DNA of 64,000 nt from assembly GCF_963665995.1 (NCBI RefSeq), contig NZ_OY762512.1:2790001-2854000 (forward strand), given 5' to 3'. This stretch comes from Pleurocapsa sp. FMAR1 (GTDB lineage Bacteria; Cyanobacteriota; Cyanobacteriia; Cyanobacteriales; Xenococcaceae). Below are positions 3,622 to 28,464 of the stretch, piece after piece. The notes under the pieces were generated by a model. It did not search any database. It saw nothing but the letters and a program-made list of their open reading frames with translations, and was not told the DNA's origin. The first letter of the stretch is position 1. Each line of letters opens with the position of its first letter. The position numbers and the translations under genes were made by a program.

Positions 3622-4115
3622 TTGTTTAGCAAAGCCTGCTTGATCCTATCTCAATACAGTTGACTTAGCAGTAAATCGCCTTATCTATAGCAAATATAAC
3701 AGTAAACATTAAATGTGTTCTTTTGATTCTAATGATTTGAGTTGATTACCAATCACTAATAAATCTTCAAAGTAGTATCATCTAATGGTAAATATTTTTC
3801 TTAAGTAATATAACACAGTTATTTAACTGATGTTTGATGTCAAACATTAGAAACTGTGGTCATTTAAGGGAAAGGATGCTTTTGAGCGAGGAAGTGCGCG
3901 GGAGCATCGCTTTTTAAACTTCTTGAAGTAAAAAAAATTTATTCTTTCAGTTAGCCGAGTTTTCAATTGTTCGGGGGTTGAATTTTCAAAAAAAATTATT
4001 TGTAAACTGTTTATGGGTAGTATTACTACAAAAAGATTCAAGTATTCACTGTTAAAAATTCAGATCGTGATCATCAAAAAAACTTATCTCAGTAAACTTT
4101 TCAGTAGCGCAGTTT
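3622..4115. other. Intergenic region with nested inverted repeats
   Basis: Between ahcY and the next gene. It holds a near-perfect palindrome ATGTTTGA-TG-TCAAACAT (3830-3847), directly preceded by CAGTTA-TT-TAACTG (3817-3830) and enclosed by ACAGTT/AACTGT, so the block around 3816-3857 can fold in several ways. A G+C-rich repeat-like stretch follows (about 3879-3910). No gene is supported. Confidence 0.4.
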
Positions 4116-14187: not shown

Positions 14188-15768
14188 ATGTCTCAAACAA
14201 CTCAAGTCAAACAACGGCAACAAGAAGATACAGTCAGCTTCAAAACTTGGATCGGTGTCATCGGTGCCATGTTAGGCGCATTTATGGCGGTGCTAGACAT
14301 TCAAATTACCAACTCGTCGTTACAAGACATTCAGGGAGCTTTAGCAGCAACTTTAGACGAAGGTTCTTGGATTTCTACGGCTTACCTGATCGCCGAAATT
14401 GTGGTAGTTCCAATTTCAGGCTGGCTGTCGCAAGTATTTTCAGTACGTCGCTATCTTTTAGTTAACGTTACTTTGTTTATCTGCTTTTCCTTTGCTTGCG
14501 CCCAGGCAACTAGCCTGGGGATAATGATTGGTCTTCGTGCCTGTCAAGGGTTTACGGGGGGCGTTTTAATTCCTATGGCACTGACTATTGTTTTGACTTT
14601 TTTACCCAAATCAAAACAATCTATTGGCATGGCAATGTTTGCTGTAACTGCCACTTTTGCGCCTTCGATTGGACCAGCTATTGGCGGCTGGCTGACGGAT
14701 AATTTGGGCTGGGAATATATCTTCTATCTCAATATAATTCCTGGGATAATTATGTTTGCAGCGATCGCCTATGCCATTCCTCCTAAACCAATGCAGCTTC
14801 ATCAACTTAAGAGGGGCGATTGGTGGGGCATCCTCAGCATGGCAATCGGTTTGGGTTCTTTAACCGTATTTTTAGAAGAAGGTAATCGCAAAGATTGGTT
14901 TGGTTCGGAGTTGGTTACCCGTTGCGCTATCTTTGCCGTAATTTTTATCGCTATTTTCTTGTGGATTGAGCTTACTCGTCGTCAACCTTTTATCAATCTA
15001 CGTCTGCTGCTACGACGTAACTTTGGGATCGGTAGTATTGCGGGAATGGGTTTGGGACTAGGTTTATACGGCTCAGTTTATATTTTGCCTTTATATTTAG
15101 CTCAGATTCAAGACTATACGGCATTGCAAATTGGGGAAGTAATTATGTGGTCGGGTTTGCCCCAGCTAGTATTAATTCCATTTGTGCCGAAATTAATGCA
15201 GCGTTTTGATGTTAGGTTGATCGCTGCCGTCGGATTTAGTATTTTTGCCGTAAGCTGTTTCATGAACTCCAACATGAGCAGCCAGACGGATATTACCCAG
15301 CTAAAGTGGTCGCAGCTAGTCAGGGCATTGGGTCAACCGTTGATGATCGTACCTCTAACCACAATTGCTACGGGCAATATTGAACCAGAACAGGCTGGTT
15401 CGGCTTCTGGCTTGTTTAACGTAATGCGTAACTTAGGTGGCTCATTTGGCATTGCTACCTTGTCTACTATACTCTCACGACGAGAGCAGTTTCATTCTAA
15501 TCGCATCGGCAATGCTGTTTCTTTGTATGCTCCCCAAACTCAACAACGACTCAATGAGTTAACCCAAAACTTTATCAGTAAAGGTAGCGATGCAGTAACG
15601 GCAAACCAGCAGGCGATCGCCGCGATCGATAATATTGTCCGCCAACAGGCTAATGTAATGGCTTACAACGATTGTTTTTATCTAATGGGGTTTGCCATTC
15701 TGATTTGCGGTTTGGCTTTGGTTTTTTGTAAGAAAGTTAAGGCTGGTGGTAATGCTGCTGCACATTAA
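14188..15768 (+). CDS. Second EmrB-type MFS transporter (DHA2)
   Basis: A second 14-helix DHA2 pump, 526 residues, 40 bases after the first. ATG 14188 (MSQTTQVKQ) gives the family start; upstream in-frame codons only read the end of the previous gene. Seen: AVLDIQITNSSLQDIQGAL, motif A WLSQVFSVRRYLL, FAPSIGPAIGGWLTDNLGWE, and a C-terminal GSASGLFNVMRNLGGSFG shared with the first pump. The two are clearly diverged paralogues (for example SLQDI against ALPDI). Two pumps with one adaptor could form a heteromer or widen substrate range (inference). Confidence 0.9.
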   Translation: MSQTTQVKQRQQEDTVSFKTWIGVIGAMLGAFMAVLDIQITNSSLQDIQGALAATLDEGSWISTAYLIAEIVVVPISGWLSQVFSVRRYLLVNVTLFICFSFACAQATSLGIMIGLRACQGFTGGVLIPMALTIVLTFLPKSKQSIGMAMFAVTATFAPSIGPAIGGWLTDNLGWEYIFYLNIIPGIIMFAAIAYAIPPKPMQLHQLKRGDWWGILSMAIGLGSLTVFLEEGNRKDWFGSELVTRCAIFAVIFIAIFLWIELTRRQPFINLRLLLRRNFGIGSIAGMGLGLGLYGSVYILPLYLAQIQDYTALQIGEVIMWSGLPQLVLIPFVPKLMQRFDVRLIAAVGFSIFAVSCFMNSNMSSQTDITQLKWSQLVRALGQPLMIVPLTTIATGNIEPEQAGSASGLFNVMRNLGGSFGIATLSTILSRREQFHSNRIGNAVSLYAPQTQQRLNELTQNFISKGSDAVTANQQAIAAIDNIVRQQANVMAYNDCFYLMGFAILICGLALVFCKKVKAGGNAAAH

Positions 15769-15872
15769 AGCTTTGTATAGAAACTAATCGAGATCCGAGC
15801 GATCGCAATTATTTATAAACACTTATACAATTTATATCCAAAGCAAATAGACCAATCGAATCATCAAGCTAT

Positions 15873-16109
15873 TCAAAATGGAATATCGTTACATTTCTGG
15901 ATACCCTCTTTTGCCAAATGTTCAATAATATAATTTGGCGTATTGGAATTATTAGCCACTTGTTGACGAATCATTCTGTCTTTATCGAAAGCTAATTTGC
16001 TGAGAATAGTTACAGTAGCACTAGGGTTGTCAGCAATAAAATATCGAACTCTCGTGTTATCACTAGCTGCACATATTTCCATCAAGTCAAGGGAACTATT
16101 ATTATCCAT
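15873..16109 (-). CDS. Small variant leucine-rich (LRV/HEAT-like) repeat protein
   Basis: 78 residues made of about two helical repeats of the LRV type: NTRVRYFIADNPSATVTILS and DRMIRQQVANNSNTPNYIIE, with the typical VA-N-NTP turn. The family often has a longer protein with many repeats; this one is short but begins at a good ATG and looks complete. Function unknown. It sits alone between the efflux cluster and a lipoprotein gene. Confidence 0.6.
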   Translation of the reverse strand: MDNNSSLDLMEICAASDNTRVRYFIADNPSATVTILSKLAFDKDRMIRQQVANNSNTPNYIIEHLAKEGIQKCNDIPF

Positions 16110-16237
16110 TGATTGATTTATTGCTTCTTAAGGATATTGAACGTTTACGAATAGTTTAAACAAAGATTAACTATCAATTAGAAGTTAACCCTTCAAACAG
16201 CCGTTTCTATGCCTAGTCTGCTGCACATTAAATTATT

Positions 16238-16882
16238 TTATTCTGACTGACAGCTTTGCTCCATTAATGAAGCTGCATTCTCATCATTAGCTATTTTTCG
16301 GATTTTTGCTGACTCGATATGTATAGGATGGAAGGGTGGCTCTGAGAAGATTTTCGGGTTTACTTGCCGAAGAGTATAGCAGCCGACAAAAGTGTCTTTT
16401 GAACCGTTTGTATTAGTTACAGAGAGCGTAACTGGTACAGTCGTGAACACGGAGCCAGCCGCACCTTCACCTCTAATTTTGCCTGTTGTCAGCTTTACTT
16501 GAGCCGTATTACTATAGCCTGCTGCAAATTGTGGATATGCAGGCGGTTGGGATTGAGCATCAGTACCTTTTTGCCCCCAATAAGAATAAGCACGCACGTA
16601 TTCTTGACGGTTAATCGCGTTGTAATAAGACTTGAGAACCTCTATTGGAGTACTGCGATCGTCGAGGTATGGCTGCTGATTGTTTTGTGCTATTTGTTGC
16701 TCTTTGGAAGGAATATTTTTTGCTTGTGATGCTTGACTTACTCTATGTGTGGAGATTGCAATTCCTTGATCGCTAGTCACCGCGTTATGATTACACCCAA
16801 TTAGAGCTATTGTCAGAATTAAATACGTCCATAACGCTGCCACACTGCCAAATCTCAATCGTTTTGCTTTCATAGTCGGCAT
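16238..16882 (-). CDS. Putative lipoprotein with NTF2-like domain
   Basis: 214 residues. Seen: basic N terminus, hydrophobic segment ending in lipobox LIGC (about residue 30), a low-complexity Gln/Ser linker, then TPIEVLKSYYNAINRQEYVRAYSYW, the helix pattern that opens NTF2-like (SnoaL/DUF4440) domains, and a beta-rich C terminus with one Cys pair candidate. Two ATGs nine bases apart (16882, 16873) are both usable. No function can be assigned. Confidence 0.65.
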   Translation of the reverse strand: MPTMKAKRLRFGSVAALWTYLILTIALIGCNHNAVTSDQGIAISTHRVSQASQAKNIPSKEQQIAQNNQQPYLDDRSTPIEVLKSYYNAINRQEYVRAYSYWGQKGTDAQSQPPAYPQFAAGYSNTAQVKLTTGKIRGEGAAGSVFTTVPVTLSVTNTNGSKDTFVGCYTLRQVNPKIFSEPPFHPIHIESAKIRKIANDENAASLMEQSCQSE

Positions 16883-16986
16883 ATATTAATTGCAATATTT
16901 ATGATAGCCATAAACTGCATCTAGTTTGAAGTGCGGAAATGCTTGGGTTTCCCAAGCTGTCTTGCAACAGTACGTGCGGACAAGTA

Positions 16987-18010
16987 TAGCAATACGTGGC
17001 TAGGTTAGGACAAAATTAGCTAAAATAAAAGCGCTCGCCAAAACCGAAAAATAATGCCTGCTCCCTATAGCTACGATTTAAGAAAAAAAGCCGTAGATGC
17101 CTGTTCTAGAGGTGAAAAGAAGAGAACTATTTGTCGATTGATGAAAATAAGCCGTAACACCTTAGACCTATGGCTGAAAAGAGAACAAGAAACAGGAGAC
17201 TTTAAAGCGGTCGCCGAGCGTCCCACCAGAGAAGAGCGAAAAATTCAGGATTTAGAGAGATTCAAACAGTTTGTTAAACAACATAAAGATAAGACACAAC
17301 AGCAAATGGCAGATTTGTGGGGAGAGAATCTTACCCAGCAAAATATTAGTGATGGAATTAAAAAGTTAGGCATAACCAGAAAAAAAGCGGTCAGACCCCG
17401 CGTCGCCGACAGGCGCAAGACAAAGGGCTTGCCCGCATGTACGCTGACCAAGACAAACTTACGGGTATCAAGAAACAGATGAAGAGAAAAGAAAAGAATT
17501 TCAAGAGCAACTAAAACATCAACAGGCAAATAACCTAGTTTATGTGGATGAAGCAGGATTCGATAACCGAGACGATTATCCCTATGGTTATAGCCCCAAA
17601 GGAGAAAGATGTTAGGCACTCAAATCTGGTAAAAGAAATGAGAGAGTAAGTTGGATTGCTGCATTCAAAGAAGGAAAAGTGTTTGCTCCGTTAACTTTTG
17701 AAGGGTCATGTAATCGAGATTTATTTGAGACATGGCTTAAAGAAAGTTTGATTCCTCAACTTCAACCTGGAAATATCATTATTATTGATAATGCTACTTT
17801 TCATAAAGGACAAAGTATTCAAGAAATAGTAGAAGAAGCAGGGTGCCAGATTTGGTATTTGCCCTCTTATTCTGCCGATCTAAACAAGATAGAGCGTTGG
17901 TGGTCGGTTCTCAAAACTTGGATGAAGCAGAGAGTTAAAGAATTTGAGACTGTTAGAGAATGTGTTGATACAGCTTTCAAAAAATGTCCTAACGTATATG
18001 CGTAATGCTA
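16987..18010 (+). mobile_element. IS630-family insertion sequence, degenerate
   Basis: 1,024-bp element with terminal inverted repeats: left end TAGCAATACG... (from 16987), right end reading TAGCATTACG... on the other strand (to 18010); both continue to a shared TTAGGACA about 27 bases in. It is flanked by TA on both sides (16985-16986, 18011-18012), the IS630/mariner target duplication. The single transposase frame is broken, so the element can move only if helped in trans. Confidence 0.85.
17054..18005 (+). pseudogene. IS630 transposase, broken by a repeat insertion and a nonsense codon
   Basis: DDE transposase. Seen: N-terminal helix-turn-helix (KKRTICRLMKISRNTLDLWL), then, after the lesions, catalytic VDEAGFD, IIDNATFHKG and LPSYSADLNKIERWW (the DDE triad). 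Lesion 1: about 17391-17455 a palindromic-repeat copy (family A) separates RKK from TYGYQET and shifts the frame by +1. Lesion 2: the codon after GERC is TAG at about 17613 where relatives have Tyr. The stop at 18003-18005 lies inside the right terminal repeat, as usual for the family. All three catalytic residues survive, so decay is recent. Confidence 0.85.
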
Positions 18011-18227
18011 TATCGAAGGGCGATCGCCATGAACAAGCCGCCTGAAAGTTATGGTCGTTGCCATCAGTTTATCGCCAATGTGCGGTGGCATACACTGATA
18101 CAGGGTCTGCTTATACAATAGTTTTTCCTCCTACGCTACAGTTAAGAATATTACCGAATATTTTGAGCTTAACAGACAAGCATACAAACTATATTTTCTA
18201 GAGCGATCGCACCCTAGCATCAGCAAA

Positions 18228-18602
18228 ATGGATTTAGATTACGAATATATAAATGAACGGTTCAAAACTTTAATTACCAATATTCCAGGCGCAATATACC
18301 GTTGTGCTAACGATGCTGACTGGACGATGGAGTTCTTGAGTGATGAAATTACGACGATCTCAGGTTATCGAGGTGCCGACTTTATTCAAAATCAAAGTCA
18401 GACTATAAAAAGCATTATTTACCCAGAAGATCGCGATCGAGTTATTCGAGAAGTAACAGAGGCGATCGCCGTTCGTCAACCCTATACAATTGAGTATCGG
18501 ATTATTCGCTCAGATGGGGAAATTAGCTGGATAAACGATCGAGGGCAAGGAATATTTGATCGAGATGGCAAACTTCTTTGGTTAGATGGAATTATCTTAT
18601 AA
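18228..18602 (+). pseudogene. PAS-domain fragment of a sensor protein
   Basis: 124 residues forming one PAS fold of the PAS_3 type: RFKTLITNIPGAIYRC, FLSDEITTISGY, IIYPEDRDRVIREV, YTIEYRIIRSDGEISWINDR, DGKLLWLDGII. It stops right where the linker to the next domain should begin; after the TAA the frame stays related (ENQPQTNTRLIDANR, then TAG), so a longer sensor (probably a histidine kinase or cyclase) has been truncated. Downstream is a response-regulator pseudogene in opposite orientation. Confidence 0.6.
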
Positions 18603-18665
18603 GAGAATCAACCTCAAACAAATACTCGTCTTATAGATGCGAATAGGTAGAAGTTTAACGAGGAA

Positions 18666-20072
18666 CTAAAATTTATGATCGACAATCATTATCTTAACTT
18701 TAGCCCCAGAACATTGTAGCAGTTGAGTTGCAGATGCGATCGCCTGAGTTGGATTCATCGGCTGCACTAACAATGTGTGTTCGCCACCACGCAATATTTT
18801 CAGACGATTAGCAAAGTCTTTGTTGGTGCTAAATAAAAATGTCTTGGGGAGTATCACCACAATTGGTAACGAGGGCATTTGCTGGTGAAATTCAGCTAGT
18901 AAATCTAGACTATCCATCGGGCTATCTTGGGTTGTTTTGCTTCTAATCTGAAATATTTTGAGCAAAACAATCGCAGGTTGGTCGCGTTGAATTATTTCTT
19001 GTGCTTGTGATGCAGTTGTAGCGATGCCTTCGGCTAGCTTCGCGATCGTTATCCATAATTAATAACAAGGGAGAACTATCTAAAACCGAATTAGAACTAA
19101 AATCGTAACGGTCGAATTTATCTCTCAAGTTGCAAACCAATTCATTGAAAGGCTCGATTTGTTCTGGCTGGGGAAAAGTCTCAGCATCGAGAAAAGCTTC
19201 TAGTTCACTTGCTAGCTTTGAGCCATCGGCAAAACCCAAACTACCTAAAGAACCTGCTAATTTATGGGCTGTTAAGTTTGCTGACTGTTTTGATTCTCGA
19301 TCAAGATCATTTTTACGGGACGCGATCTCCGTCTTTTCTAAAACCACTAAGCGATCGCTTAGTGGTTTTAGAAAAGACGGAGATCGCGCTTCGGAATTGG
19401 ATACAGACTCAGTTGGTTGTTGGGCTTTATTAGATAGTGGCTTAAGTCAATAACCTATCCCGTAAACCGTTTCCATTAAATCTTTAGCTGCACCAGCCCC
19501 TTTTAACTTTTGACGCAGTGTTTTAATATGCGTTCTAACTGCTTCCTCAGTCGGCGGTTCTTCAAAAGTCCAGAGGTTTTCCATAATTCCCTTAAGACTA
19601 AAAACGCGGTTATGGTTGCGTAGAAATAGCTCTAGCAAAGCATAATCTTTTGCCGTTAAATTGAGAGATTTCTCATCATCAATCACCTCTAAACTATTAA
19701 GATTGAGACTTAAATTACCCTACCTTAATCTAATGGATTCGCACCGTAAGCTCGTTAAAATTGAATGGTTTGACTAGATAATCATCAGCCCCAGCATTGA
19801 AACCTTTGACAGTATCCGTGCTGCGATTGCGAGTAGTTAACATGAGAACGGGCATACTGTAATCGCGATCGCGAAGTTTTTTACACAGGCTGATGCCATC
19901 AATTTTTGGCAGCATTACATCTAAAACCACCAAATCGTAGCTAAAAAGCTCGATATATTCCCATGCTTCTTCACCATCTAAAGACAATATCCAACGCATA
20001 TCTTTGAGCGATAAAATGCCTAGACAGTGCATCTAACAACACTTCATCATCGCCCACTAATAAAAGTCTCAT
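18666..20072 (-). pseudogene. Multidomain response regulator (REC-wHTH-HPt-REC), heavily decayed
   Basis: Reads on the minus strand from ATG 20072. Order: receiver start MRLLLVGDDE, frameshift near 19990, receiver body DLVVLDVMLPKIDGISLCKK and LTTRNRSTDTVKGFNAGADD, loss of the domain end near 19735, OmpR-type winged helix KSLNLTAKDYALLELFLRNH...GIGY, TGA in place of an Arg-type codon (19450-19448), linker, HPt domain with AHKLAGSLGSLGF, second receiver start LLLIMDNDRE, frameshift near 19055 at a small repeat (GCGAAGC...GGCATCGC), then a receiver remnant ending MIVDHKF. At least five lesions. This architecture is known in cyanobacteria as multi-component winged-helix regulators. A 68-bp palindrome lies in the linker. 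Confidence 0.75.
19321..19388. repeat. Perfect 68-bp palindrome centred on a HIP1 site
   Basis: Bases 19321-19354 are the exact reverse complement of 19355-19388, with no loop; the centre is the HIP1 octamer GCGATCGC (19351-19358). It lies in the linker of the decayed response regulator. Reading across it, the frame stays open (…SFLKPLSDR then LVVLEKTEIASR), so it may be an inverted duplication of one 34-bp arm. Confidence 0.95.
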
Positions 20073-20279
20073 TTAAGTTTTGGGAATCGCTTGAAGTCTT
20101 TGTTCTATCTATCGACCATTTATAAGTCGTTGAAACCATATTACTAAGCTCATCACCAACTATAAGCTGATTTCAAGCGATCGCTTTTAAGACCATCAAG
20201 CGATAAAATTAATTATTTTAACGAGCGAAGCTACAAGCTTGGGTTAAAGTAGCTGCGGACAAGTCCTTACTCTTTTCTA

Positions 20280-20330
20280 TCTTTTATAGAAAGTGAAAAC
20301 CCACGCGGTTCACCCGTGGGATGGAAAAAC
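20280..20330. other. Hairpin resembling an IS200/IS605 element end
   Basis: CCCACG (20300-20305) and CGTGGG pair around a short loop containing GGTTCAC, preceded by GTGAAAA and followed by ATGGAAAAACC. Similar subterminal hairpins mark ends of TnpB-carrying elements and the 3' end of their guide RNA. It could be an end of the tnpB element described below or of a lost one. Confidence 0.4.
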
Positions 20331-20539
20331 CAATCGCTTAATATACGCAATTTACATCGAAGCCGTGTTTGTGGTACGATTATCGTCGCTCTGGGTTTAA
20401 AGCCTTGCCCTATAAGGGCAGCTTTGCTGTGTGTGCTTATAGCTTATAGCCAGAATCACCCGTCATTCATGCGGGTAAGCAGTCAAATCATGAAACAGTG
20501 CAACCCGTTAAGGTCAAAGGTAATACATATTACCGTCAA

Positions 20540-21590
20540 CCTTGTGAGATAACATCTCATAACTTTTTATTTTATAGAGGTTAAATTCCTCTCTACCGAA
20601 CCCAAGGTATGAATCCGTCTACCCAGGTTTTGCTAATTGGTAACTAGCATCTCTCGGTGCATGGGTAGAAATGCAGCCCTGCCAAAAGTCGTCTTTAGGT
20701 ATCCTGCTAGGGAAGATACATACGGTTAACGTACAGTTAATCCACTCACCTTGTCGTAAAGATGGTATGGACGCAAAGCGACTGAAAATATAGAGCTTTC
20801 AACTCTATATCCAAGATTTTGGTCAAAGAAGCACTTCAGACTTTAAACGTACAGTGCAGACTAATTGAAGGATGAAGCGTTCGCCAGAAAGAAATGTCAA
20901 ATAGACTACATTAAAGTGTTTCGTGAATGTGTAAGGGTGTCTGACACGGCATATTGTGGAAACCTAAGTGTATCGAGAAATAGAAAAAAAGGAACAGGGA
21001 AACCCAATATGTCTCCAGATAAGAGAATAAAATTTGCCCTCATTGAACCTAGTTAAAGGAAGAAAGTTTATCGCTATTTGCGTACTTGTTTCATACTTCG
21101 TTTAACTCAAATTTCCAAGAGGTGCGTCGAGAAGCTGGATAACTTGCTTTTATTAATCATAATAGCAACATCTGAACTCTGTGAGCGACAAAACAAAGAT
21201 AAATCTCAAAACAATGGTAGGCAACCAGCCACAAGATATATTGGAATAGGATGTCCTAAAAAGCCAATGCCTTATCCCTGAACGGACAGGGGAAGGGGAA
21301 ACCCAAGGATATGCCTACGTAGGATGGTTAATGCGTAGGATACGACTTAGTAACATCTAAAATGCCCAATACGCAGATGCGTACAGAAGGCTTTAAAACT
21401 GACACTTCCAAGGCGGTCAAGCGTGGGATTATAAGGGTGAAAACAGCGTTAAACAATCCAAGTCCGAAGACTGGTAACGGTCAAAGACACCATATACATG
21501 GCGCATACCAGGAGCTAGATGAGTTGGAAACTCTCACGTCTGGTTTTGAAGTAGAGGTGAGGTATCAGAAATGAACCCATCGACTATAAC
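20540..21590 (+). mobile_element. Probable ORF-less group II intron (3' part certain, 5' end not placed)
   Basis: No protein-coding frame, yet highly structured. The 3' end carries a typical domain V at 21512-21548: GAGC start, GAG-UUGGAAACU-CUC tip with the GNRA-like loop, and GUCUGGUUUU closing arm. A domain VI-like arm follows and could end at TATAAC (21590), comparable with CTAAC and TCGAC at the ends of the next two introns. Upstream blocks such as GGGAAACCCAA (20998-21008 and 21296-21306), GAAACCTAAGTGTATCGAGA and CCTTATCCCTGAACGG look like domain I helices. The 5' GTGYG could not be located; 20540 is a rough guess. Immediately downstream comes the start of tnpB. Confidence 0.5.
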
Positions 21591-22868
21591 ACTGCGCGGA
21601 TTCAAGTACAGATTTTACGTGCGGTTCGTTAGTGTCACCAATCTTAACCGCTGAAGTACACTGCACGCAGGCAATTGCGTCATTAGGAAAGCTCTAATTT
21701 TAAAAAAAAAGAGCGATACCGAGACAACTTACTCATCATGGTAGTGAGGAGCATTCCAAGTCTACCCCTCTAGAAATAAGAGTGAAAGCATCATATCCAA
21801 CTTTAGAAACTGATAATGTCTAATGTTGAAGCGATATGAAAACCACCCAAACTAGTAGCCAAAACTGGTGCAAGTGGGAGCAACTGAATATGGATAACGA
21901 AAGTGAATTCTTGGTAATTCTTTGTAATGTATAACCTGGGGAATGGCTTATATCCAGGGAGCGAAATAAGCTCAAGGTGGGCACAGTAAAGGATACTGGG
22001 CAGTGAAACGCAGTACATATTTAACTCTCGCGCCCCCGAAGAAGAGAGGAATCCTAAACTCAGGAAACAATGGTAAGTAGGAACGAATCAAAGGATGGGA
22101 AGGTTCTCTGTAAACAGAGTAGTTATCCGCAAAGAAACCACCCAATCTAGGGATTGTGGAATAAGCCAAAGCCTATCTGTAATAGATATGGATATGCTGA
22201 CAGCCACACTGCTGTATGGGATGTTCATTTTCTGATTAAAAGTTAATAAATCCAATATGGAGATTACATCAAAGTCGGAATGGAATAACTAGGATGAAAT
22301 CGACTTTAATCCAGTCGATTCCAGCATATTTAAGCTTCAAAAGAGAATCTACAGAGCATCATTAACCGAGGACTATAAGTTAGTTCACAAGCTTCAAAAG
22401 TTAATGGTTAAATCCTGGTATGGAAAACTACTAGCTGTAAGGAAAGTAGCTCAGGAAAATAAAGGTAAGAAAACTGCTGGAGTAGATGGGATTAAGTCTA
22501 TTTCTCCTAGTAAGAGGCTTGCACTTGTTGACCAGCTTGCTATAGACGGTATTGCAAATCCAACTAGAAGGGTTTGGATTCCTAAACCTGGAAAGAAAGA
22601 AATGCGACCGCTAGGCATACCAACCATGCTAGATAGATCCAAACAGTCCCTTCTCAAGCTGGCAATCGAGCCAGAATGGGAAGCAAAGTTTTTGAAGGCA
22701 AATGAGTTGGCTTCAGACCAGGTAGGTCGTGTCACGATGCAATCAAAGCTATTAAAGATAGTATCAAGACCAAATCTAAATTTGTTCTTGATGCAGATAT
22801 AGCCAGTTGTTTTGACAAAATCAAACATGACACTCTTCTAAATAAACTAAACACTCTTCCAAAGTTCA

Positions 22869-22910
22869 AAAGTCAACTACTCCTGATTTTAACCAGGAGT
22901 AGTTGACTTT
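22869..22910. repeat. 17-bp perfect inverted repeat at a frameshift
   Basis: 22869-22885 is the exact reverse complement of 22894-22910 (arm AAAGTCAACTACTCCTG), loop of 8. Upstream the reverse-transcriptase frame is phase 2, downstream it is phase 0, so the lesion coincides with the repeat. Confidence 0.9.
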
Positions 22911-22968
22911 AGTAAATGGTCAGAAAGAAAAGGATACAACCAAACACAAGCTGGAACTCCACAAGGCG

Positions 22969-23002
22969 GGGCGATATTCGCCATTATTGGCGAATATCGC
23001 CC
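22969..23002. repeat. 14-bp perfect inverted repeat created by a one-base insertion
   Basis: GGGCGATATTCGCC (22969-22982) and GGCGAATATCGCCC (22989-23002), loop ATTATT. Coding for the invariant ISPLLANIALHG requires one T fewer in the left arm (ATATCG in place of ATATTCG); the extra T is what makes the arms complementary. Confidence 0.9.
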
Positions 23003-24146
23003 TACACGGGCTGGAAAACAAGCTAAAAGGACTAGTAGTAACTCTACCCAATAGATATCCAAATGGGGAAAATATGCGTAAGAAAGACAAAGCATTCTCT
23101 TTGTCCGTAATACGTTATGCTGACGATTTCGTCATCTTACATAAAAATATCGAAACAGTTCTTAAGTGTAAGGAAGTAATAGAAGAGTGGCTTCAAAATT
23201 TTGACCTAGAATTAAAGCCAAGTAAAACCAGAATTGCCCATACTCGTGATGAATATAATGGTGAAAAACCTGGATTTGATTTTCTTGGATTTCACATTCA
23301 ACACCATAAATTAGGTAAACATCATTCAGGAAAGGACACCAAAGGTAATAGACTTGGATTTAAGACTATCATTGAACCTCAGAAAGAAAAAATCCAACTA
23401 CATTACAGAAAACTGGATGAATGTATGAACAAAATGAGTTCATTCAAACAATCGGAACTTATTGGTAAACTCATCCCTATTATTAGAGGATGGTGTAATT
23501 ATCAAAGTCCTTGGAACTCATCTAACGCATTTAGAAAGTTAACTAACTTAATGTGGAATAGATTATGGAGATGGGGTAAACGTCTTCATCCAAATAAAGG
23601 TAGAAAATGGATTGCCAGGAAATACTGGGATCTAAAAGATAAAGGATGGAGATTTACATTCAAATCAAAAGACTTTTCTTACGCCCTACCAAAACACTCT
23701 GACTTCAGTTGTGGAAAGATGTGGGTCAAAGTACAAAATACTAGAAGCCCCTTTGATGGCGATGAAACTTATTGGAGTAAAAGGATGGGAGATAAATATC
23801 TAACATCCGACCCACAAAAATCCAGGCTAATTAAAAAGCAGAAGGGTAAATGTGGTCATTGTGGATTAAACTTCCACCCAGAAGATTTGACTGAAAAACA
23901 CCATATTCAAGAAAAATCAAAAGGTGGCAACAATTCAGATAAGAACCTAGTTCTAATACATCTACATTGTCATGATAAAGTTCACGGTAAAAGATGATGG
24001 TACAAATTATGGTACTAGCCATACACTGAGGAGCGGTATGAAGGGAAACTTTCACGTACCGTTTTGGAGGGAAGTAGGGAAAGGCAACTTTCCTTACTCA
24101 CCTAACTCAACTTCAGTGCAGCGATTAGAGCTAGCGCAAACGTTTG

Positions 24147-24205
24147 GCACAGCCTGCTTTGCAGGCAAGCGTCGCTAGACGCGACTTGAGCCTTCGGCTC
24201 TGTCC
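24147..24205. repeat. Palindromic repeat inserted in tnpB exon 2
   Basis: Two hairpins, GCCTGC-TTT-GCAGGC (24152-24166) and GAGCC-TTC-GGCTC (24188-24200), with GCGTCGCTAGACGC between them. They interrupt tnpB exactly between AQTFG and RFVYNW and add a TAG. Confidence 0.85.
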
Positions 24206-25913
24206 AGATTCGTATACAACTGGGCATTAGCTTTAAGAACCAATAGTTACTACCAAGATAACGTATCTCTTAGCTATACAGATACTTCTAATGCTCTAAC
24301 TAAATTAAAGAAAGATCCAGAAAAACCTTGGTTAAAACAAGTTTCAGCAGTCCCATCACAGCAAGGACTAAGGCATCTAAATACTGCATTCATCAACTTT
24401 TTCGCTGGTAGAAACAAGTATCCTAGATTTAAAAAGAAGAACAGTCGGCAGTCATGTCATTACGCACCAAATGCTTTTAAATGGGAAAAAGACGCATTAA
24501 CTTTAGCTAAAATGCCTCAACAGTTGAAAATCAAATGGAGCAGATATTTTACTGGTGAGCCTAAATCTGTAACTATTTCTAAAGATTCAAGTAATAGATA
24601 TTTTGTCTCTTTCTTAGTTGAAGAAGAATTAGAACAGTGGCAAACAACAGTAGGTAAAATCGGTGTTGACTTGGGCGTAAAAGATGTGATGGTGACTAGC
24701 ACGGGCTTTGCTTCTGGCAATCCTAAATGCCACCAAAAATATCAGACTAGATTAAAGACGTTACAGCGCAGACTAGCAAAGAAAAAGAAAGGTTCAAATA
24801 ACAGGTATAAAGCAAGGCTAAAAGTAGCGAAACTACACGCTAAAATAGCCGATTGCCGTAAAGACTGTCTTGGTGCGCGAAAACCAAGCTATCTATACTG
24901 AGACGTTAGCTGTAAAAAACATGATGGCGAATCATAAACTCGCCAAGATCATAGCAAGCCCTCCAGCGTGCGTGGATGGGGCGAAGCATTACGTCAATTC
25001 CAGTACAAATGTAAATGGCATGACCGCGTACTTGGAGCAATAGATAGATGGTTTCCATCTTCTAAACGCTGCAATCCTTGCGGTCATATTTTAGATAAGC
25101 TACCTTTAGATGTTAGAGAGTGGGTATATCCTAGCTGTAAAAACCTCAACTTGAGGGATAAAAACGCAGCAATAATGTGCGATTCGTTCAGTCGAAACCT
25201 AATAATAGGGGAATGACTGGCATCTGTTAAGTAACCAGTAATGGTAGAGTTCGCACTTTAATCCTTAACAGATGACAACTTCATAATCATATAAGTGAGT
25301 GAGAGTACCCTAGAAATCACAAGTCTTATTACCCCAGTACTGGGTTAAAAACATATTCCCCAGGTTCGAGACTAGCCATCAACGCCTGAAGCGGGAATAA
25401 AAGCGGAAAGAAGAGGTAAACCTAATACCAAATCCCGTTATTAAAATCTCTAAGAATAGCGAAAGCAAAGAACTGTAAAAAAACTGCCGTTACTGCGAAC
25501 CAGTGAAAATAGGTTGACACACTGGGAGTACCAAAAGGTCATAGGGTCATATTTATATGACATAAGGGCGATAGAAGAGTATTATTCGGTCTATCAGTAC
25601 AACCCTAAAACTTGGTGGAGTGGTTCATTCTAAGGAGATTAAAACGATGATTGTGAGGAACGAAATAATCTATCCGAATGCTCCTATTGAATGGTCGAAT
25701 ATCGATAGGTAGTCAGCTAAGACGAAAAATCTACTTAAAAAGGTAGGCATCAGATAGAAAAGATTGAGTCAGAAGCCAACGCTCTATTGTAATGATAGAG
25801 ATATGCCGACAGACTTACGGTAATACGGAATGTAAAGCAAGCAATAGTAGTACATAAGTCATAAACACGGATAATCCGATGTAAAACAAGTTAGAAAACT
25901 CCAAAAGACATTA

Positions 25914-27677
25914 ATGAGGTCTTGGTCAAATAAGGTCTTAGCGATTCGGCGGGTAACTCAAGATAATAGAGGGCAAAAGACAGCAGGAGTGGATGGTAAG
26001 AAATCACTATCTCCAGAAGCACGTCTTAGACTCATAGGACAACTCAAACTTATAGGAAAAAGTAGACCTACTCGAAGAGTTTGGATACCCAAACCTGGAA
26101 AGGATGAAAAACGTCCACTTGGAATCCCAACAATGCACGACCGCGCCTTACAAGCGTTATTAAAACACGCCATAGAGCCAGAATGGGAAGCTCTCTTCGA
26201 GAGCAATTCCTACGGATTTCGACCAGGACGTTCCTGTCAAGATGCTATCAAGCAAATAAAAAATGCAATTCAATCTAAAGCCAAATATGTGCTGGATGCT
26301 GATATTGCAAAATGCTTTGATAAAATCAACCACTTAGCCTTACTACAGAAACTCGGTTACACGGGCAAATTCAGGCAACAACTTAAAGCTTGGTTAAAAT
26401 CTGGAGTCATAGACCAAAAGGTATTTACTGCCACATCCGAAGGAACACCTCAAGGTGGGGTTATAAGCCCTTTACTTGCTAATGTTGCTCTACACGGGAT
26501 GGAAAAGATGTTAATGAAGTTTGCCAAAACTCTTGATGTTAAAAGGAAAGATAAACCAAACAGCCAGATTAGCTGGCAACAAAAGGTCAAATCTCTTACC
26601 TTTATCAGGTATGCAGATGACTTTCTTCTAATACATCATGACCTAAATGTAGTCAAAAGATGCAGAGAATTAATCTCTGAGTGGTTAAAAGACATGGGAC
26701 TGGAACTAAAACCTTCAAAAACCAGAATCGCCCACACTTTAATTTCAGAGCAAAGCGAAGATGGACAAGCTGGGTTTGACTTTTTGGGCTATCACATTCG
26801 ACAGTTTCGGGTGGGAAAATACAAAAGTTCAATACATCCCAGCACCAAAGAAAAACTTGGTTTTAGAACATTCATTATTCCATCAAAATTTGCCTGTAAG
26901 AAACATCAACAAAAGATTAAAGATGTTTTTAAGAAACACAAATACTCCCATCAAGCAAAACTTATAGTTGAGGCGCACGGAAGCCTCGATGCATCGAGGC
27001 TGTCCGCCGTCGCCTGCTTGCAGCTTAACCCGATTATCCGAGGATGGACAAATTATTATTCATTTTCTGATGCTCAGGGAACAGGAGTACTAACAGGTCA
27101 AGATTACCTCGTATTCCAAAAACTTAGAGCTTGGAGTCGTCACCGTACTGGTGATTGGGGAAAAGCAATTAAAAAGTATTGGACAACCATTGGTAATAGA
27201 AACTGGGTATTCGCAACCAGAAAAGGAGATAAAAATCCCCTTCGGTTACTAACACATACTGAATTTGGAAGCAGTAGCATTGAATATGTGAAAGTTAAAG
27301 GTGATGCCAGTCCATTTGACGGGAAATTAATCTATTGGAATACCAGGATGGGACGTAGCCCCGATATGCCTTCTCGAAAAGCATTACTGCTCAAGAGACA
27401 AAAAGGTGTGTGTTCCTGGTGTTGCTTACGCTTTCGTGAAGGAGATTTGTTAGAAACTGACCACAATATTCCTCGCGCCCTCGGTGGTAAAGACGAATAT
27501 AAGAATCTACAACTCCTATATGGGCATTGCCATGACGAAAAAACTGCCCTTGACATGGAATTTATTAGAAATCAAAGATTCATAAAATACATGGATTACA
27601 TCAACCAAACACTAGCTAAATCTAACTGGCTTTGGAATGAAAATGATTTTCTAATAGTTTCAGACAACAAAGAGTAG
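25914..27677 (+). CDS. ltrA: Group II intron reverse transcriptase/maturase with HNH endonuclease
   Basis: Intron-encoded protein that helps splicing and copies the intron RNA into DNA. 587 residues from ATG 25914. Seen: KTAGVDG (22-28), RRVWIPKPGKDEKRPLGIP (54-72), GFRPGRSCQDAI (101-112), YVLDADIAKCFDKI (125-138), TPQGGVISPLLANVALHG (178-195), catalytic YADD (233-236), maturase X PIIRGWTNYY, and C-terminal HNH CSWCCL...TDHNIPRALGG...HCHDEK (about 497-545). All key residues are present. The N terminus looks ~40 residues short: family-like residues (SDVKQVRKLQKTL) continue upstream to a TAA at 25872. Residues ~353-369 are an in-frame palindromic insert. Activity is therefore uncertain. The symbol is the generic name for such proteins. 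Confidence 0.88.
   Translation: MRSWSNKVLAIRRVTQDNRGQKTAGVDGKKSLSPEARLRLIGQLKLIGKSRPTRRVWIPKPGKDEKRPLGIPTMHDRALQALLKHAIEPEWEALFESNSYGFRPGRSCQDAIKQIKNAIQSKAKYVLDADIAKCFDKINHLALLQKLGYTGKFRQQLKAWLKSGVIDQKVFTATSEGTPQGGVISPLLANVALHGMEKMLMKFAKTLDVKRKDKPNSQISWQQKVKSLTFIRYADDFLLIHHDLNVVKRCRELISEWLKDMGLELKPSKTRIAHTLISEQSEDGQAGFDFLGYHIRQFRVGKYKSSIHPSTKEKLGFRTFIIPSKFACKKHQQKIKDVFKKHKYSHQAKLIVEAHGSLDASRLSAVACLQLNPIIRGWTNYYSFSDAQGTGVLTGQDYLVFQKLRAWSRHRTGDWGKAIKKYWTTIGNRNWVFATRKGDKNPLRLLTHTEFGSSSIEYVKVKGDASPFDGKLIYWNTRMGRSPDMPSRKALLLKRQKGVCSWCCLRFREGDLLETDHNIPRALGGKDEYKNLQLLYGHCHDEKTALDMEFIRNQRFIKYMDYINQTLAKSNWLWNENDFLIVSDNKE
26970..27022. repeat. In-frame palindromic repeat insert in the intron 2 maturase
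   Basis: Contains the perfect 18-bp palindrome GCCTCGATGCATCGAGGC (26983-27000) followed by GTCCGCCGTCGCCTGC. It encodes about 17 extra residues (AHGSLDASRLSAVACLQ) between KLIVE and LNPIIRGW, where the intron 1 protein goes directly from IGK to LIPIIRGW. Confidence 0.75.
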
Positions 27678-27857
27678 GATGTCCCACTGACAATGGGGAA
27701 TATGTTGAGTAGCCGAGTGAGGGGAAATCTCTCACGCTCGGTTTCGGACGGGAGGGGTGTAGTGGTAACACTCACCTCGACCTTTCTAGTGTCAAAATAG
27801 ACCTATTGCATGAATCGAGAGAAAGTGAGAAAAGTAGGTCAGAGAGTGAAAAAAAGA

Positions 27858-28317
27858 ATGACCTACAAACAAATAAAAAATCTGAGAGACAAAGGGCTTG
27901 CACGCATGTAAGAATTTAAACGTTTGTGCGGGGTGAAACCCAAACTGTTTGATGAAATGGTAAAGGTGTTGAAGCGCGAATAGCCTAAATGCATACAGCG
28001 AGGGGGACAACTAAAATTGAGTACGGAAGACCAATTACTAATTACTTTAGAATATTGGTCAGAGTACCGTACTTATTTTCAGATCGCAAGCGTCATGGGG
28101 AGTTCATGAATCTACAATCGCGTGGAGCGATTCGCCGTTGCAAAGCAACGTCGGATTGCCGAAGGCAATCGCAGAATAGTTCACCGAGTAGAAGACAAGC
28201 TGATTAAATCAAAAAAGTTCAGCTTACCTGGGAAAAAAGCACTATCGTCTAGCGAAATAAAATGGTTAGCGGTAATTATAGATGTGGGAGAAAGTCCAAT
28301 TGAACGCCCTAAAAAGC
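27858..28317 (+). pseudogene. IS5-family transposase remnant
   Basis: N-terminal half of a DDE transposase of the IS5 group. From ATG 27858: MTYKQIKNLRDK, a family A repeat copy (27888-27910) ending in TAA, then EFKRLCGVKPKLFDEMVKVL, TAG, LSTEDQLLITLEYWSEYRTYFQIASVMG, frameshift, a palindromic repeat (about 28126-28178), RVEDKLIKSKKFSLPGKKAL and VIIDVGESPIERPKK (first catalytic Asp in IIDVGES). The rest is missing. Its start abuts the 3' end of group II intron 2. Confidence 0.75.
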
Positions 28318-28464
28318 CGTATCTGCCGCTTTCCGTTGTGAATGTGAGCGTTTTTTACAATTTTTGTATAAGAACAGCAACAGCTTGGGCAAATCAGCAT
28401 CATTAAAAGCTTTAAAATATTAGTTCTTAATTCTAAATCATTACTTCTACACGACTACCAAAAT

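What the first reader, a model, noticed from the sequence alone, without database searches (positions are those of the whole stretch)
21571..25176. A TnpB gene rebuilt across a group II intron
Joining base 21618 to 24107 restores one frame with a normal TnpB start (GFKYRFY then STSVQRLELAQTFG) and removes a segment that begins GTGCG and ends with domain V/VI and CTAAC. The exon bases TTTTAC can pair with GTAAAG at 21986-21991. Intron 2 at 25177 shows the same logic: AATAAT exon bases against ATTATT at 25581-25586, and it sits in the RuvC-III NAAI motif. Multiple group II introns in a single RNA-guided nuclease gene would make the nuclease depend on splicing.
Basis: partly seen in the sequence, partly recalled or inferred. 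Interest (0 to 1): 0.8.

Follow-up and report, generated by a model that had tools for sequence, protein, structure and literature searches.

The report
Dead TnpB gene holding three introns
A broken gene for an RNA-guided DNA-cutting enzyme in a cyanobacterium carries three self-splicing introns, and relatives show that such introns have settled in this kind of gene more than once, twice in copies that otherwise look intact.

Summary
The 21618|24107 junction is right: relatives without an intron read RFY|PTSAQ across it, and three sister introns have the same ends. The real start is ATGAAACA at 20490; joining 20497|21591 and 21618|24107 gives MKQLRGFKYRFYSTSVQ (relatives MKQLRGFKYRFYPTSAQ). 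So the gene holds three introns.

It is nevertheless dead: an in-frame TAG in a palindromic insert, a frameshifted stretch near 24880-24960, and loss of the tnpB tail and right-end hairpin behind intron 2. This copy cannot be a splicing-gated nuclease.

Relatives are more interesting. Of four copies found of the intron-1 lineage (388 genomes), three sit at the same tnpB codon pair (RFY|P or RFF|P) in diverged tnpB genes; the fourth is in an HNH-like gene. Two relatives (L211, L212) carry an intron-0-like intron behind the start codon of an otherwise intact, about 400-aa tnpB, with 6/6 EBS1-IBS1 pairing. Introns inside insertion sequences are known (RmInt1). The listings I saw (titles and abstract starts) report none inside tnpB. 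New variant of a known kind.

The parts
20351..20383 (+). Upstream (promoter-side) sequence of the tnpB element
   Evidence: Aligns with the bases just before the tnpB ATG above every one of 200 shuffles for 4 of 14 relatives (L088, L089, L087, L100; the two best are L089 and L088); not for the other 10
20490..20497 (+). tnpB exon 1, ATGAAACA (M K and two bases of Q)
   Evidence: Only ATGARACA in 15000-22000, followed by GTGC; joins to give MKQLRGF
20498..21590 (+). Intron 0: ORF-less group II intron, 1093 nt, 5' end GTGCA (G to A at position 5)
   Evidence: Homologue in G162 aligned over all 1093 positions at 83%, another in G175 over 32-1093 at 80%; longest stop-free run 80 codons
20917..20922 (+). 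Predicted EBS1 of intron 0, TGTTTC
   Evidence: Pairs 6/6 with GAAACA; aligned column 5/6, 6/6, 6/6 in L209, L211, L212
21510..21590 (+).
   Evidence: RF00029, 44.5 bits; D5/D6 covariation in 7 members
21591..21618 (+). tnpB exon 2, 28 nt (rest of Q, then LRGFKYRFY)
   Evidence: blastn with relatives: exactly 21591-21618 in L088, L090, L097
21619..24106 (+). Intron 1: group II intron, 2488 nt
   Evidence: RF00029 24029-24106, 58.4 bits; sisters L198, L199, L200 at 82-85%
21986..21991 (+). Predicted EBS1 of intron 1, GTAAAG
22257..23994 (+). Broken intron-encoded protein of intron 1 (two frames)
   Evidence: tblastn with the L199 protein: 22257-22991 frame 3, 22963-23994 frame 1; ORF pieces, Pfam RVT_N, RVT_1, GIIM, HNH
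24107..25176 (+). tnpB exon 3, broken (stops, frameshifts)
24148..24205 (+). Palindromic insert in exon 3 with in-frame TAG at 24176-24178
   Evidence: Gap between aligned pieces of relatives; translation
25177..27788 (+). Intron 2: group II intron whose last base or bases are missing or changed; recombinant (see passing notes)
   Evidence: 5' edge shared with four places; RF00029 27708-27781, 41 bits; 3' comparison
25581..25586 (+). Predicted EBS1 of intron 2, ATTATT
   Evidence: Pairs 6/6 with AATAAT; not supported by sisters
25914..27677 (+). Intact intron-encoded protein of intron 2, 587 aa
   Evidence: ORF; Pfam RVT_1, RVT_N, GIIM, HNH
27787..27794 (+). AGTGTCAA, probably the last 8 nt of the tnpB element's right end
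   Evidence: Relatives' elements end ..AGTGTCAA (by eye); the next element begins at about 27796-27797. CTAGTGTCA also lies downstream of intron copy L054, an alternative source

Best explanation
This is a decayed IS200/IS605-type tnpB gene carrying three different group II introns: behind the start codon (intron 0, ORF-less), between the conserved codons RFY|P (intron 1, its own protein now broken) and in the RuvC-III NAA motif (intron 2, protein intact). Shown by sequence: exon identity with relatives, both ends of introns 0 and 1, the 5' end of intron 2, EBS1-IBS1 pairing for introns 0 and 1, and the lesions. Inferred: that each arrived by retrohoming guided by its exon-binding sites, and that each could splice on arrival. 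The copy makes no full TnpB now, spliced or not. The intron-1 lineage looks like an intron that homes to tnpB, since in relatives it occupies the same codon pair of other, diverged tnpB genes.
For: Exon joins and relatives. Intron ends. Pairing. D5/D6 covariation of the intron-0 family: 98.3% of cells paired, slid versions 34-45%, 10 of 25 pairs changed on both sides (the structure came from the same alignment, and two of five shuffle controls are weak, 11/500 and 314/500). Lesions. Same codon in three of the four copies of the intron-1 lineage found in 388 genomes.
Against: No RNA was examined. Intron 0 has GTGCA instead of GTGCG. EBS1 of intron 2 is not supported by its aligned sisters. Intron 2's 3' end is uncertain. 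Only four copies of the intron-1 lineage were found, two of them in one genome, so the preference for tnpB rests on few cases, and the HNH-like gene of the fourth also offers TAC|CC. Introns in tnpB are rare: a D5/D6 model found one inside tnpB in 1 of 80 tnpB loci.
Confidence: 0.88

Rival explanations
1. One reading: this tnpB is functional and its nuclease is made only after splicing.
For: Exon joins restore a normal N-terminus; RuvC and zinc-finger pieces are recognisable.
Against: In-frame TAG at 24176-24178 and a frameshifted stretch in exon 3; start of intron 0 is GTGCA; tnpB tail and right-end hairpin not found behind intron 2.
Confidence: 0.03
2. In intron-split tnpB genes the D6 of the ORF-less intron supplies a substitute start (ATG at 21571 in the window, GTG in L211 and L212), so that unspliced RNA can be translated with an N-terminal extension; the reader's start is such a substitute.
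For: In the window, L211 and L212 the codon is in frame with the tnpB exon and follows GAGGTGA. A second AUG usable without splicing is described for T. elongatus twintrons (PMC2882425, passages).
Against: In the alignment of 7 introns L209, L210 and L214 have no such codon, and GAGGTGA is also a conserved D6 stem strand (6 of 7), so both may be by-products of RNA structure. In the window the product would still be broken.
Confidence: 0.12
3. The introns entered a tnpB that was already dead, as neutral clutter; nothing ties them to tnpB beyond the many mobile elements of this genome.
For: The genome has 24 D5/D6 places, 21 over the cut-off, and the gene has many lesions. Of 7 loci matching intron 0 that I inspected, 5 are not followed by tnpB.
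Against: Three diverged tnpB genes carry the intron-1 lineage at one codon pair; L211 and L212 are intact apart from the intron.
Confidence: 0.3

Closest known systems
RmInt1 in ISRm2011-2 of Sinorhizobium meliloti (PMC4238363; abstract read)
   Same: A group II intron whose home is inside an insertion sequence, proposed to limit that element through imperfect splicing.
   Different: Another host element and gene; here the host gene is tnpB, several intron lineages are involved, and the window copy is dead.
Thermosynechococcus elongatus TeI3/TeI4 introns and twintrons (PMC2882425; passages read)
   Same: Many related introns in a cyanobacterium, ORF-less members driven in trans, and an ORF-less intron sitting near the start of another ORF where a second AUG could be used without splicing.
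   Different: There the interrupted ORF is an intron maturase, here tnpB.
IStrons (PMC4227781; abstract start in the listings only)
   Same: An insertion sequence joined with a self-splicing intron.
   Different: Those use a group I intron as part of the element; here group II introns interrupt the tnpB coding sequence.
TnpB RNA-guided endonucleases with solved structures (8bf8, 8h1j)
   Same: The exon of L211 aligns over residues 2-388 with chain 7-399 of 8bf8, E 2.4e-71.
   Different: The window gene is broken; L211 and L212 are split by an intron.

Membership tests
Group II intron | 5' end GTGYG | tested here: met
   Introns 1 and 2 GTGCG; intron 0 is GTGCA, so not met there
Group II intron | Domains V and VI | tested here: met
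   RF00029 at or above the gathering score for all three (58.4, 44.5, 41 bits against 40)
Group II intron | EBS1-IBS1 pairing with the 5' exon | tested here: met
   6/6 in all three; supported by relatives for introns 0 and 1, not for intron 2
Group II intron | Intact 3' end | tested here: inconclusive
   Introns 0 and 1 end in AAC as their relatives do; intron 2 uncertain, last base or bases missing or changed
Group II intron | Domains I-IV, splicing and mobility | not tested
   No full-domain model, no RNA data
TnpB, window copy | OrfB_IS605 and TNB domains | tested here: met
   PF01385 and PF07282 in the open pieces
TnpB, window copy | Open reading frame after removal of introns | tested here: not met
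   Stops and frameshifts; tail missing
TnpB, window copy | Right-end hairpin and guide RNA region | tested here: not met
   Only AGTGTCAA of the right end is seen
TnpB in L211 and L212 | Complete domain set in an open exon | tested here: met
   PF12323 from profile position 5, PF01385, PF07282, all over cut-off; open exons of 396 and 403 codons
TnpB in L211 and L212 | RNA-guided nuclease activity | not testable with these tools
   Needs an experiment

The most novel reading that the evidence does not exclude
In these cyanobacteria ORF-less group II introns have settled behind the start codon of intact tnpB genes, so that an RNA-guided nuclease is made from spliced RNA only, or at another level and with another N-terminus from unspliced RNA: a splicing-gated OMEGA nuclease whose maturase comes in trans from other introns, while a second intron lineage homes to the RFY|P codons of tnpB.
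Probability: 0.25. Interest if true: 0.75.

Novelty: new variant of a known kind. Interest (0 to 1): 0.5.

Why it matters
TnpB is the small relative of Cas12 nucleases. A retroelement that uses conserved codons of that gene as a landing site would tie two kinds of RNA-guided mobile element together and could make nuclease production conditional on splicing. The open, split genes in L211 and L212 make this testable; the window copy shows how such a locus ends.

Tried and rejected
The ATG at 21571 as the tnpB start: rejected, it is inside D6 of intron 0. GTGCG at 21122 as the 5' end of intron 0: rejected, the base before it does not end a tnpB exon and the homologue in G162 aligns from 20498. 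AGTGTCAA as the end of the downstream transposase element: rejected, copies of that element start at 27796-27798; CTAGTGTCA downstream of intron copy L054 is kept as a less likely source. A substitute start in D6 as a rule: not conserved, kept as a rival. Selection on tnpB since the intron arrived in L211 and L212: not shown, since the introns are 91.2% identical while exon 2 is 76.7% identical with dN 0.16 and dS 1.0, which points to separate insertions into diverged alleles. An exact pattern for the window's RFY codons followed by GTGYG matched only the window among 27 family genomes. The CTAAC-type end after a zinc-finger stretch in L035 was not settled.
Full report
Setting. A genome counted as the same genus (G135) has a contig of 111,021 bases with the best tnpB match, as has Waterburya agarophytonicola KI4, so a pleurocapsalean (Xenococcaceae-like) cyanobacterium is inferred. 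The genome is rich in group II introns: 24 D5/D6 places at E <= 0.001, 21 of them over the Rfam cut-off, and 26 reverse-transcriptase places. It has 6 places with the TnpB zinc-ribbon domain.

The junction. Nine relative tnpB loci without an intron were compared with the window by blastn. Six of nine give a piece ending at 21618 (L088, L089, L090, L092, L093, L097) and seven of nine a piece starting at 24105-24119 (the same six and L094); L100 and L111 give only the long exon. Their proteins read for example MKQLRGFKYRFYPTSAQRLELAQTFGC (L089). In three of nine the first piece begins at 21591, the base after the D6 of another RF00029 match, 21510-21590.

Intron 0 and the real start. ATGARACA occurs once in 15000-22000, at 20490, directly followed by GTGC. 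Joining 20497|21591 and 21618|24107 gives MKQLRGFKYRFYSTSVQRLELAQTFG. A search of 291 genomes with 20498-21590 found matches in 25, nearly all partial; one in G162 covers positions 1-1093 at 83%, one in G175 covers 32-1093 at 80%. The predicted EBS1 (20917-20922) pairs 6/6 with the exon; at the aligned column L209 pairs 5/6, L211 6/6 and L212 6/6 although their exon bases differ (0.2-2.5% of intron positions would pair as well). D5 and D6 of seven members covary: 98.3% of cells paired against 34-45% when slid; of five shuffle controls three give 0/500, one 11/500 and one (further pair types) 314/500; the structure was derived from the same alignment. The intron has no stop-free run over 80 codons and no match to the intron-1 protein. 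Its fifth base is A, not G, which may impair splicing. The sequence 20351-20383 matches relatives' upstream sequence above all shuffles in 4 of 14; 106 nt separate it from the ATG where L088 has 3, so an insert lies between.

Intron 1. The first 21 bases occur in 3 of 388 genomes, 4 places: these and the window. In L198 and L199 the intron is in tnpB at the same codon pair: MKMRLAYRYRFY|PSLEQRIQLAQT and MVERAYKYRFF|PSTEQENLLRR. In L200 it is at MPVNPNLY|PDNWNSLALKVK, an HNH-like gene by eye (not searched in Pfam). EBS1 pairs 6, 5, 6 and 5 of 6 in window, L198, L199, L200 (1.0-6.9% of positions pair as well). The L198 tnpB is itself frameshifted soon after the intron; the L199 contig ends early. 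The window's own intron-1 protein is split over two frames.

Intron 2. Four other places of the genome begin to align exactly at 25177. From 25878 on it is identical to L011 at 1909 of 1911 positions, before that at 469 of 684 aligned. Its EBS1 pairs 6/6, but the aligned column in L011, L014, L015 and L202 pairs 4, 4, 0 and 3 of 6. Rfam ends the window's D6 at 27781 (41 bits) and that of copy L054 (the 3' end of L011) seventeen bases further on in sequence terms, at CTTTCTACTTTAAC (39.2 bits, below the cut-off). The window matches that copy to 27788 and then leaves it. Whichever end is right, the tnpB tail (7 relatives tested) has no match in the window after 25174 better than E 0.18. AGTGTCAA at 27787-27794 equals the last bases of relatives' right ends and lies just before a transposase element that begins at 27796-27798. 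The simplest reading is a deletion from the last base or bases of intron 2 to near the end of the tnpB element. CTAGTGTCA also occurs downstream of L054, which I cannot explain.

State of the gene. TAG at 24176-24178 in a 58-nt palindromic insert, and a stretch near 24880-24960 in another frame. The gene is broken with or without splicing.

How common. Rare, on what was tested. The D5/D6 model R1 found 2 of 80 tnpB loci: L105, which is the place of L198 and lies in tnpB, and L106, on the other strand. R1 matched 277 of 388 genomes, so it is not specific to one lineage. Of its 30 fetched loci 18 had full flanks and 12 were dropped; 3 of 18 are followed by a TnpB N-terminus (window, L211, L212, all in the model's training set) and one more (L241) by a TnpB-like zinc-finger stretch by eye, which is itself broken. 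Of 7 loci matching intron 0 that I inspected, 2 (L211, L212) are followed by tnpB. A further tnpB-like gene, L202 in Hyella, with PF07282 in its 5' exon, is split after DVFPTI by an intron from 1266 with D5/D6 ending at 3946; its upstream part looks truncated and the 3' exon was read by eye.

Open split genes. L211 (G268) reads ATGACTGAGCG|T GCT TAC, MTERAYKYRFF. The introns are 1182 and 1189 nt. Behind them are open exons of 396 and 403 codons with PF12323 (from profile position 5), PF01385 and PF07282 over their cut-offs. L211 aligns with solved TnpB chains (8bf8, E 2.4e-71); in the one alignment shown, to the best hit 9yyg, the stretches GIDAG, IEDL and DRDIN face GVDLG, VEDL and DRDEN; that these hold the catalytic residues is recalled. 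L212 keeps GAATCCCTCG..CGAGGGAGGATGTCAA, like a right-end hairpin (by eye); none was seen in L211. The introns are 91.2% identical and exon 2 76.7%, dN 0.16, dS 1.0, which suggests separate insertions at the same codon. Here the native start needs splicing, unless translation begins at a GTG inside D6.

Comparison with print. T. elongatus ORF-less introns sit between the first two ATGs of an intron ORF, and the authors note that the second AUG could be used without splicing (PMC2882425, passages). RmInt1 lives in an insertion sequence and is proposed to restrain it (PMC4238363, abstract). PMC7923331 has an IS200/605 element beside a group II intron locus (passages). PMC8919778 reports up to 101 group II introns in a cyanobacterial genome (passages). 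Searches listed no title or abstract start that reports a group II intron inside tnpB; lists 43, 58 and 59 were capped at 15, only open-licence papers are held, and the other papers were not opened.

Verdict. The main junction is right, the start and the far end are not. Dependence on splicing fails for this copy but is a fair, testable idea for L211 and L212.

Noticed in passing
window 25177-27788; L011, L013: Intron 2 looks like a recombinant: from 25878 on it is 1909/1911 identical to two other copies, before that only 469 of 684 aligned bases, and its 5' exon differs. Such a swap would change the exon-binding sites while keeping the protein.
   Followed up: partly
L199:4252: A second group II-like 5' end (GTGCGATTCGTTC) lies 61 nt after intron 1 in the same Hyella tnpB; the contig ends at 4441 before its end can be seen.
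   Followed up: no
window 24148-24205, 22869-22910, near 24879; L087, L094: Small palindromic inserts in tnpB and in the intron-1 protein. In L087 and L094 tnpB carries an in-frame insert at the place matching 24879.
   Followed up: partly
window 20384-20489: An insert between the tnpB upstream sequence and the ATG, containing GAATCACCCG..CGGGTAAGCAGTCAA, which resembles a right-end hairpin of this element family (by eye).
   Followed up: no
window 27796-28406: Broken transposase-like element behind intron 2, with partial copies elsewhere in the genome; its family was not tested.
   Followed up: partly
window 17054-18005: Another transposase-like gene split into two open frames; IS630-like by recall, not tested.
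   Followed up: no
L211:109-219: A TnpB C-terminal fragment upstream of the split tnpB, and a second D5/D6 on the other strand at 2853-2931 downstream.
   Followed up: no
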